Source: Clostridiales bacterium DTU069 (GTDB taxonomy: Bacteria > Bacillota > Clostridia > DSM-8532). From it: a stretch of DNA of 64,000 nt. Below the pieces are notes generated by a model. It made no database searches and was not told the DNA's origin. It was given only the letters and a program-made list of their open reading frames with translations. Location: the NCBI GenBank assembly GCA_001512485.1, contig LFRV01000095.1, forward strand, positions 1-64,000, written 5' to 3'. Position numbers and translations under genes: made by a program. This document shows, one piece after another, positions 12,521 to 37,720 of the stretch (positions are counted from its first letter, which is position 1; the number at the start of each line of letters is the position of its first letter).

Positions 12521-12790
12521 TTGCTTTGTCGCCCCAGGAACCCGAAACACCCGAACCAGGACCCGCGGGAATTACGACGAAAACACAGCGGGTGGTTCGG
12601 GTGCTTTCGGTGACGACGGGCGACATGCTCCGAAGCCCTTCTACCTACAGGCAACTGTGGAGCGGGTTAATGAGCGAAACGGGATATGGAGACCACTTCT
12701 TAATGAAATGAACAGGATCTAAAGCGTGTTGTCGGTATGTGCTTTGTCGACACAGGAAACGAAACACCCGAACCAGGACCCGCGGGAATA
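12521..12790. repeat. Intergenic repeat B, copy 1 (includes A-less site)
   Basis: G+C-rich repeat in the gap between ftsK and yjbQ. It contains two near-identical 50-base units starting GCTTTGTCG (about 12522 and 12740). The first unit runs straight from CCCGCGGGAA into a TTACG..GAAAACACAGCGGGTGG arm, that is, a B element with no family-A insertion. The middle segment (12620-12790) matches the reverse complement of copy B4. Confidence 0.8.
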
Positions 12791-12811
12791 ATGTCTAACA
12801 TTTTACTTCCT

Positions 12812-12960
12812 GAACTATTGTACAATAACGTCAACAAGGAGCTTCATTTGCAAGAGCTATACAGTTCAGCTCGGGAAAGTCGAAACTCGCAAAAATGCTT
12901 TAAAAAATCTCTGCTTCGTTTTCTGCCTTGTTTCATGCCGAAAAAGAGTATACAATAATG
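12812..12960. repeat. Hairpin element A, copy 1 (right arm degraded)
   Basis: Begins with GAACTATTGTACAATAAC and matches copies A2 and A3 nearly base for base to about 12905. The right arm is diverged and keeps only a TTTCATGCCG block and a TATACAATAATG end. It sits directly after the second B unit, at the same B-A junction as in A2. Confidence 0.8.
12928..12956 (+). promoter_or_regulatory. Possible yjbQ promoter inside element A1
   Basis: Plus-strand TTGTTT (12928-12933), 17-base spacer, TACAAT (12951-12956). The -10 box lies in the decayed terminal repeat of element A1. It is about 50 bases before the yjbQ start. Confidence 0.45.
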
Positions 12961-16013: not shown

Positions 16014-16064
16014 TGCTTTGTCGACCTAGGAAACGAAACACCCGAAACAGGACCCTTGGAAACA
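16014..16064. repeat. Intergenic repeat B, copy 2, left part
   Basis: GCTTTGTCG..CTAGGAAACGAAACACCCGAAACAGGACCC, the same unit as in copy B1. It is followed by a short linker and then element A2. Confidence 0.8.
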
Positions 16065-16084
16065 TGTCTAACATTTTACTTCCT

Positions 16085-16288
16085 GAACTATTGTACAATA
16101 ACGTCAACAAGGAGCTTCATTTGCAAGAGCTATACAGTTCAGCTCGGGCAAGTCGAAACTCGCAAAAATGCTTTAAAAAATTTTTGCAGGCAGCATTTTT
16201 GCTCAGACAGTCGACTTGCTTTCCCTCGCTCTGACTGTATATCTCTATGCTTCATTCCGCTATAGCTTCCGTTATTGTACAATAGTTC
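16085..16288. repeat. Hairpin element A, copy 2 (complete)
   Basis: 204-bp element bounded by perfect inverted 18-mers, GAACTATTGTACAATAAC and its complement. The halves are imperfectly complementary along their length (GCTTCAT..TATACAG..AGTCGA..GCAAAAATGC), so a transcript would fold into one long hairpin. It encodes no protein. The size and terminal repeats resemble a MITE-type non-autonomous element. Confidence 0.85.
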
Positions 16289-16303
16289 TTCTGAGTAGCC
16301 CGT

Positions 16304-16401
16304 GAGAGTTACGCCGAAAACACAGCGGGTGGTTAACGGGTCGAGGCTTTGCTGCCGCGTTCCGGTGGGTACACGGCTTTGGTTCGGGTGTTTTCGGTAA
16401 C
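16304..16401. repeat. Intergenic repeat B, copy 2, right part
   Basis: Continues the B sequence interrupted by A2: GAAAACACAGCGGGTGG, then a hairpin CGCGTTCC-GGTG-GGTACACG, then GGTTCGGGTGTTTTCGG. It ends about eight bases before the tyrA stop codon. Confidence 0.8.
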
Positions 16402-18648: not shown

Positions 18649-18676
18649 AAAAAAAAGCCCACAGCGGGGCATTAGA
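18649..18676 (-). terminator. Terminator after the xerD-like gene
   Basis: On the minus strand GCCCC-GCTG-TGGGC is followed by eight Ts. The stem is short but the T run is strong. It lies in the tail of repeat B3. Confidence 0.5.
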
Positions 18677-18722
18677 GCATGTCATCCTTCGTCACCGAAA
18701 GCACCCGAACGAGGGCAGCGTG
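18661..18722. repeat. Intergenic repeat B, copy 3 (partial)
   Basis: Contains TTCGGGTGCTTTCGGTGACGA..GACATGCTC on the minus strand, matching B1. It begins at the stop codon of the xerD-like gene. Confidence 0.7.
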
Positions 18723-30240: not shown

Positions 30241-30588
30241 GCCGCTTTTGAACTGTTGCACTAAACACTATCCCCGCGGGTCCTGCTTCGGGTGTTTTCG
30301 TTTACTTGGGCGACAAAGCACCTACCGATAGCACGCTCCATGCATTTTATTAAATTCGCACAGTGGTCTCCATATTCCGGGTCGCTCATTTGCCCGCTCC
30401 ACAGTTACCTGTACGCAGCAGGGCTTCGGAGCATGTCGCCCGGCGTAACCGAAAACACCCGAATCAGAGCCGCGTACCAATCGGAACGCGGCAGCAATGC
30501 CTAGACCCGTTAATCACCCGCTGGTTTGCGGCATTAATTGCAGGTGAAGACTTGTTACCATGTAATTACGCAATAGTTCAAAAGCGGC
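30241..30588. repeat. Intergenic repeat B, copy 4, with 13-bp terminal inverted repeats
   Basis: 348-bp unit bounded by GCCGCTTTTGAAC (30241-30253) and its perfect complement (30576-30588). The similarity extends inward as GAACT-TTGC. The body matches B1 in reverse orientation and contains the hairpin CGCGTTCC-GATT-GGTACGCG on its minus strand. Short ORFs in the track here are not credible. No clear target duplication flanks it. Confidence 0.8.
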
Positions 30589-37360: not shown

Positions 37361-37412
37361 CTGTTACCCGTCGTCACTGAAATCACTTGAATAGACCCCG
37401 CGGAAATAATGT
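37361..37412. repeat. Intergenic repeat B, copy 5, left part
   Basis: CGTCACTGAAATCACTTGAATAGACCCCGCGGAAATAATG, the mirror image of the right part at 37661. Element A3 lies between them. Confidence 0.65.
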
Positions 37413-37429
37413 TTATACACTGCCCATTA

Positions 37430-37635
37430 GAACTATTGTACAATAACGTCAACAAGGAGCTTCATTTGCAAGAGCTATACAGTTCAGTTCGGGCAAGTCG
37501 AAACTCGCAAAAATGCTTCGGAATATTTTTTGCAGGAAGCATTTTTGCTCAAACAGTCGACTTGCTTATCCTCGCTCTGACTGTATATCTCTAGGCTTCA
37601 TTCCGCTATAGTTTCCTTTTATTGTACAATAGTTC
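37430..37635. repeat. Hairpin element A, copy 3 (complete)
   Basis: 206-bp element with the same terminal GAACTATTGTACAATAAC (right end one base different) and the same imperfectly palindromic interior as A2. It lies upstream of dnaE and downstream of the CPBP gene. No coding capacity. Confidence 0.85.
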
Positions 37636-37660
37636 CTCTGATTATTGCGCTGATTCAACC

Positions 37661-37700
37661 AATCAGCCAGCGGGTGGTTCGGGTGATTTCAGTGCGACTG
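37661..37700. repeat. Intergenic repeat B, copy 5, right part
   Basis: CAGCCAGCGGGTGGTTCGGGTGATTTCAGTGCGA, complementary to the left part (CACTGAAATCAC). It ends about 20 bases before the CPBP protease stop. Confidence 0.7.
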
Positions 37701-37720
37701 GAGATACTGCGGTGTTGCGT

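What the first reader, a model, noticed from the sequence alone, without database searches (positions are those of the whole stretch)
16014..16401. Nested composite repeat: hairpin element A lodged at one fixed site inside repeat B
Elements A1, A2 and A3 all sit at the same point of the B sequence, between CCCGCGGGAA and the GCGGGTGG arm. The first unit of B1 (12522-12620) runs through that point without A, an apparent empty site. A has 18-bp terminal inverted repeats and folds end to end into one hairpin. This looks like a small non-autonomous mobile element or structured RNA gene spreading as an A-in-B unit, and I do not recognise it as a named family.
Basis: partly seen in the sequence, partly recalled or inferred. 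Interest (0 to 1): 0.75.

Follow-up and report, generated by a model that had tools for sequence, protein, structure and literature searches.

The report
Nested mobile hairpin repeats in Clostridia
A 204-base DNA hairpin, scattered in dozens of copies through a few Clostridia genomes, nearly always sits in the loop of a second repeated hairpin, and it carries a short unpaired-base signature that also tops unrelated-looking hairpins in other bacterial phyla.

Summary
Element A (window 16085-16288) has ~19-bp terminal inverted repeats, folds end to end (z = -6.9) and sits in the loop of hairpin repeat B. In the three g1 genomes, 30 of 49 near-full A copies have B arms detected on both sides and 15 on one side, with A always in the same orientation.

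A is not bound to B. Related genomes carry it in tandem (G004) or inside another outer hairpin (G007). It is patchy: 8 of 33 genomes of the order, absent from two congeners of carriers. There is no Rfam match, no open frame, no transposase-sized pair of its ends, and no link to Y1/RAYT transposases.

A's stems covary strongly while its internal-loop letters stay fixed. The same letters, compacted to AACTCGCTNCGCTCAAACAG, cap other hairpins in 12 of 399 genomes of the phylum and on named plasmids from further phyla.

Most likely A is a non-autonomous, structure-selected hairpin repeat (MITE/REP-like) moved in trans by an unidentified enzyme, lodged in B and copied with it.

The parts
12522..12739 (+). 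complete B unit with empty loop (GAATTACGACGAAAACA) plus its linker; the next unit follows directly (218-bp tandem period)
   Evidence: 52 own-genome matches; loop class; DNA fold z -3.0
12740..12811 (+). left arm of second B unit and spacer leading to A1
12812..12914 (+). A1: left half of A only, truncated
   Evidence: homology stops near 12914; model R1 gives only 18 bits here
16014..16062 (+). left arm of B around A3
16085..16288 (+). A3: full element A, end-to-end hairpin
   Evidence: R1 core at 16125-16246, 144 bits
16085..16103 (+). left terminal inverted repeat GAACTATTGTACAATAACG, holding the 12-bp palindrome TATTGTACAATA
16270..16288 (-). right terminal inverted repeat
16157..16162 (+). 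conserved left internal loop AACTCG
   Evidence: same letters in five distant genomes
16202..16210 (+). conserved right internal loop CTCAGACAG (family consensus CTCAAACAG)
16323..16401 (+). right arm of B around A3, interrupted by hairpin C
16333..16380 (+). hairpin module C (GCCGCG...CACGGC) in the right arm of B; in the relative G001 it lies in the left arm, reversed
18667..18721 (-). fragment of B right arm
30261..30580 (-). B units on the other strand; the orthologous place in G001 lacks 30338-30571
37372..37705 (+). B around the A copy at 37430; both outer arms are of right-arm type, so the interior looks flipped
37430..37635 (+). full element A; G002 has A at the orthologous place, G001 has an empty B there

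Best explanation
A is a non-autonomous interspersed hairpin element (MITE/REP-like) whose folded form is under selection. Shown: dispersed intergenic copies, a patchy distribution, palindromic ends, covarying stems and fixed internal-loop letters. Inferred: an enzyme supplied in trans recognises the folded hairpin (probably as single-stranded DNA) through its internal loops and moves or copies it. In an ancestor of genus g1 A landed once or a few times in the terminal loop of an older hairpin repeat, B, and the composite was then copied and exchanged among intergenic sites by recombination. Palindrome-only loops are most likely former A sites from which the core was lost precisely between its two 12-bp TATTGTACAATA ends, and internally deleted copies are steps of the same decay.
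For: Copies: 48 in own genome, 17, 26, 54, 8, 31 and 7 in relatives; absent from congeners G010 and G015 of G004. No full copy lies inside an open frame. Covariation: 12 of 32 pairs and 116 cells change on both sides against 36 in shuffles; 96% of cells paired against 36-44% with slid partners. Loop letters are fixed while stems are replaced in G397, G280, G256, G395 and G013. A is found outside B, in tandem (G004) or in hairpin D (G007). Four loop states in B and frequent internal deletions. At the 37.4-kb locus two species have A and one has an empty B. A's strand is not tied to that of co-directional neighbouring genes (10 same, 18 opposite), which argues against a role in read-through transcripts.
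Against: No transposase with matching ends was found. No clean insertion with a target duplication was seen: a copied loop sequence beside A is significant in only 2 of 35 filled loops. The orthologous sites read in detail mostly hold repeats in both species with different content, so single insertion events could not be dated. Whether palindrome-only loops come before or after A cannot be settled from sequence, because the end repeat is itself a palindrome.
Confidence: 0.55

Rival explanations
1. A inserts site-specifically: the bare 20-bp palindrome in the B loop is the target and is duplicated on insertion (12 bp TATTGTACAATA), as IS elements do that target REP palindromes. Each filled loop is then an independent insertion.
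For: The bare palindrome occurs many times, often inside B loops. Filled copies look exactly like palindrome - core - palindrome. Palindrome-only and filled copies share at least five spacer classes. Precedent: ISPsy8, ISPpu9/10 and ISRm22 insert at one point of REPs (PMC1525189).
Against: In G004, G006 and mostly G007 the flanking sequences are inverted, not direct, repeats and not perfect palindromes, so they look like element ends rather than duplicated target. Precise loss between 12-bp repeats flanking a hairpin gives the same picture, and partial deletions are common.
Confidence: 0.2
2. A is a structured non-coding RNA gene family that multiplied with a mobile carrier; conserved internal loops are a protein- or RNA-binding motif acting in RNA.
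For: Covariation with fixed loop letters is what RNA genes show. Diverged single copies exist in other families; one sits between argS and the next gene. All 39 full copies with both neighbours assigned lie upstream of at least one gene, none between convergent genes.
Against: Up to 54 near-identical copies per genome, tandem arrays, absence from close relatives, no strand preference relative to neighbouring genes, no Rfam match. Folded single-stranded DNA would give the same covariation.
Confidence: 0.15
3. The covariation is a by-product of palindrome homogenisation (template switching between arms), with no selection on structure; A is a neutral, decaying palindromic repeat.
For: Quasi-palindromes are known to be homogenised this way (general knowledge). 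End repeats change on both arms together in L023 and L137.
Against: Homogenisation would also erase the asymmetric internal loops, yet their letters persist across genera and in far relatives with wholly different stems.
Confidence: 0.1

Closest known systems
MITEs, e.g. RUP and Correia elements (PMC3049150 and references there)
   Same: Short, non-coding, terminal inverted repeats, strong folding, intergenic, many copies
   Different: No target-site duplication shown, no partner IS with matching ends, and conserved internal loops with covarying stems, which ordinary MITEs do not need
BOX elements of Streptococcus (PMC3049150)
   Same: Modular interspersed repeats made of hairpins with variable module content, clustering and nesting with other repeats
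   Different: Different sequence; here one hairpin sits in the loop of another, and the guest also exists alone or in another host hairpin
REP/BIME and REPIN elements moved by RAYT (Y1) transposases (PMC2817692, PMC3116915)
   Same: Imperfect hairpins in intergenic space, tandem and inverted arrangements
   Different: 200 nt rather than 20-40 nt (length as in PMC3733652), and Y1 transposase is missing from four A-rich genomes
IS elements that insert into REP palindromes (IS1397, ISPsy8, ISPpu9/10, ISRm22; PMC1525189)
   Same: A mobile element lodged at one fixed point of a repeated palindrome
   Different: A has no transposase gene and no short target duplication was shown
Integron attC sites
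   Same: Folded single-stranded hairpins with conserved unpaired bases and free stem sequence (general knowledge)
   Different: No integron boxes recognised by eye, no cassette arrays, no integrase beside A; the comparison was by inspection only

Membership tests
MITE | terminal inverted repeats | tested here: met
   19-20 bp in the own genome; an equivalent GATATTGTGCAATA end in other genera
MITE | no coding capacity | tested here: met
   one search lists only short chance frames across A; its stem sequences are replaced in relatives
MITE | target-site duplication | tested here: inconclusive
   Copied loop sequence significant in 2 of 35 filled loops; the palindromic end makes duplication and inverted repeat indistinguishable in g1
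MITE | autonomous relative with the same ends | tested here: not met
   No pair of ends at IS-like spacing among the listed end matches in the own genome (list cut at 100 of 136; draft assembly)
REP/REPIN moved by RAYT | Y1 transposase in the genome | tested here: not met
   No PF01797 in G001, G002, G004, G006, though these carry 8-54 A copies; also none in G141, G256, G395, G754
Rfam RNA family | match to a curated covariance model | tested here: not met
   nothing above gathering score in A, B or distant homologues
Structured RNA or folded DNA element | compensatory changes in stems | tested here: met
Structured RNA | transcription with defined ends | not testable with these tools
   no expression data
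BOX-type modular repeat | modules recombined in variable number | tested here: met
   B, C, palindrome and A occur in different combinations
BOX-type modular repeat | homology to boxA/boxB/boxC | not tested
   no BOX sequence was compared
Integron attC | conserved end boxes and neighbouring cassettes or integrase | tested here: inconclusive
   Boxes judged by eye only; no shared neighbour gene near the apex-motif hairpins; tyrosine recombinases next to one Aureibacter copy
ISfinder element | match to a named IS or MITE | not testable with these tools
   no ISfinder library available

The most novel reading that the evidence does not exclude
A is one branch of an undescribed, cross-phylum class of mobile hairpins defined not by stem sequence but by one conserved, largely unpaired apex, AACTCGCTNCGCTCAAACAG (opened up in A as AACTCGC...GCTCAAACAG). 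An unknown enzyme reads the apex in the folded single strand and moves hairpins of any stem sequence that carry it, which would explain hairpins lodged inside hairpins.
Probability: 0.3. Interest if true: 0.8.

Novelty: new variant of a known kind. Interest (0 to 1): 0.55.

Why it matters
Bacterial interspersed palindromes are usually grouped by sequence, genus by genus. Here a shared internal-loop signature links repeats whose stems have nothing in common, in several phyla, and gives a simple pattern for finding them. It makes the question of what recognises and moves such hairpins testable. Nested loops with empty, palindrome-only, deleted and full states in one genome are also a natural record of hairpin gain and loss. 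On a practical level, A copies sit at the ends of several contigs of related draft genomes.

Tried and rejected
Rfam scans of the window, of A/B loci and of distant homologues: nothing above threshold. Phage and plasmid records with the full A-in-B sequence: no match. Viral contigs with A and B patterns: none. RAYT/Y1 transposase as the mover: not correlated. An autonomous element with the same ends: none seen. Target duplication as proof of insertion: I first thought the filled loops carried a 15-bp duplication, but a shuffled control left it significant in only 2 of 35, so it is not used as support. Orthologous sites in G001/G002 as clean empty sites: most hold repeats in both species with different content. 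Covariation in B's own arms: weak. Literature: no paper in the held library prints the apex motif in a bacterial-repeat context, and no described Clostridia repeat family of this kind was found.

Full report
WHAT IS THERE. The window lies in a 2.55-Mb draft Clostridia genome. Its closest named relative is MAG JAAYXD010000123.1, 'Clostridiaceae bacterium', syntenic at about 87%; that contig has the same length as contig C142 of G001, so G001 is taken to be this MAG. The 388-bp stretch has 83 matches in the own genome. Element A is 204 bp, ends in inverted repeats GAACTATTGTACAATAACG / CGTTATTGTACAATAGTTC, and folds end to end. Repeat B is an independent hairpin that also occurs in tandem with a 218-bp period. 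Hairpin C sits in B's right arm and, in a relative, reversed in its left arm.

THE NEST. B loops were classified by what lies between GGACCCGCGG and CAGCGGGTGG. About 16 loops are 15-17 nt and empty. About 14 are 61-92 nt, and nearly all of these hold the 20-bp palindrome GAACTATTGTACAATAGTTC. Several of 122-152 nt hold A with internal deletions. The rest, 234-274 nt, hold full A. In the three genomes of genus g1, 30 of 49 near-full A copies have B arms detected on both sides and 15 on one side, always with A in the same orientation. Spacers beside A fall into at least five classes, and each of these holds both palindrome-only and A-filled copies. So A was gained repeatedly at the palindrome, or lost repeatedly and precisely between its two 12-bp palindromic ends. 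I favour loss, because partial deletions are common and because in other genera the same ends are ordinary inverted repeats rather than palindromes. A copied piece of the B loop on the far side of A would have been good evidence of insertion; with a shuffled control it is significant in only 2 of 35 loops, so I do not rely on it.

A WITHOUT B. A homologues at 75-87% identity occur in other genera of the family. In G004 they stand in tandem about 220 bp apart with no B. In G007 all 13 near-full copies have at least one arm, and 8 have both, of a different outer hairpin, GTTACTGTTCAC...GTGAACAGTAAC. In G006 another hairpin has entered A's own left arm. A covariance model finds A in 8 of 33 genomes of the order: 48, 17, 26, 54, 8, 31 and 7 copies, and one weak hit. 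It is missing from G010 and G015, which belong to the same genus as G004. This patchiness with high similarity between genera points to mobility.

STRUCTURE IS KEPT. In 60 distinct copies 96% of cells of the 32 predicted pairs are paired. 12 pairs and 116 cells have changes on both sides (36 expected from shuffles), and sliding the partners by 1-3 columns drops pairing to 36-44%. The variable stem GAGCTNNNCAG / CTGNNNATCTC shows it by eye. The unpaired letters AACTCG, CTCAAACAG and TATCCTC hardly vary. A class-wide search found diverged single copies in G397, G280, G256, G395 and G013. In these, stems are replaced by other complementary sequences while the loop letters stay. That argues against plain homogenisation of palindrome arms, which would also erase the asymmetric loops.

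A WIDER CLASS. In four of the distant hits the apex is compact: AACTCGCTTCGCTCAAACAG or one base longer. This 20-mer, with up to one mismatch, occurs in 12 of 399 genomes drawn from the phylum, with 1-17 copies each, against one hit for the reversed control. Among 24 distinct sites the flanking 8 nt are complementary at 6.5 of 8 positions on average, against 3.6 shuffled and at most 4.6. It also occurs on plasmids of Ilyobacter polytropus (13 places), Variovorax, Parabacteroides, Aureibacter and Butyrivibrio. The sites read there top predicted hairpins, and in Variovorax and Parabacteroides two face each other about 350-400 bp apart. It is absent from 28 Gb of E. coli genomes and from phage records apart from weak matches. 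No common neighbour gene was seen.

HOW IT MIGHT WORK. Shown: dispersal, patchy distribution, end repeats, folding, covariation, fixed loops, nested loop states. Inferred: an enzyme acting in trans reads the folded single strand. The obvious candidate, a RAYT/Y1 transposase, is absent from several A-rich genomes. In the g1 genomes no full A copy interrupts an open frame. Of 39 copies with both neighbours assigned, 28 lie between co-directional genes, 11 between divergent and none between convergent genes. A's strand relative to co-directional genes is 10 same to 18 opposite, not significant (simple ORF calls, hand count of strands). This speaks against a function in read-through RNA, but a short RNA of its own is not excluded.

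WHAT IS UNCERTAIN. Orthologous sites show turnover rather than clean insertion. At 37.4 kb the own genome and G002 have A, while G001 has an empty B in the other orientation. At 30.3 kb G001 lacks 234 bp of the B cluster. The own-genome copy at 37.4 kb has two right-type outer arms, so hairpin interiors seem to flip. All G genomes are held without names and most are drafts. ISfinder and expression data were not available. I have a vague recollection of similar motif-bearing repeats in other bacteria, which is a lead and not a test, so the wider class may be partly known to specialists.

Noticed in passing
L185 1501-1621; L190, L191, L193, L180, L192: Single diverged homologues of A's core in other Clostridia families, with stems replaced and loop letters kept; one lies between argS and the next gene.
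   Followed up: partly
L233-L237 and L226 (plasmids of Ilyobacter, Variovorax, Parabacteroides, Butyrivibrio, Aureibacter): The apex motif AACTCGCTNCGCTCAAACAG tops hairpins on plasmids of several phyla; Ilyobacter pILYOP01 has 13 places. In Parabacteroides two inverted copies flank a 25-codon 'smalltalk protein' gene; in Aureibacter two tyrosine recombinase genes lie alongside.
   Followed up: partly
window 16333-16380; L063 11329-11385: Hairpin C sits in B's right arm here but reversed in the left arm at the orthologous locus of G001, as if hairpin interiors invert between their own arms.
   Followed up: partly
G002 contigs C65, C59, C98, C346; G001 contigs C136, C255, C57: Several contigs of related draft genomes start or end inside or next to A, so A breaks assemblies and copy numbers are underestimates.
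   Followed up: no
A copies of G000, G001, G002: Of 39 full copies with both neighbours assigned, none lies between convergent genes and 11 lie between divergent ones; in co-directional pairs A tends to sit close behind the upstream stop codon.
   Followed up: partly
L105-L107 (G006): A second, unrelated hairpin (GTTTTTAACGCAGAGCGTTAAAAGACGC...) is inserted in A's left arm in the G006 copies read: a further level of nesting.
   Followed up: no
L138 139-344 (G002): One A copy in G002 has the ends of the other-genus type (AGATATTGTGCAAT), suggesting transfer or an old second subfamily.
   Followed up: no
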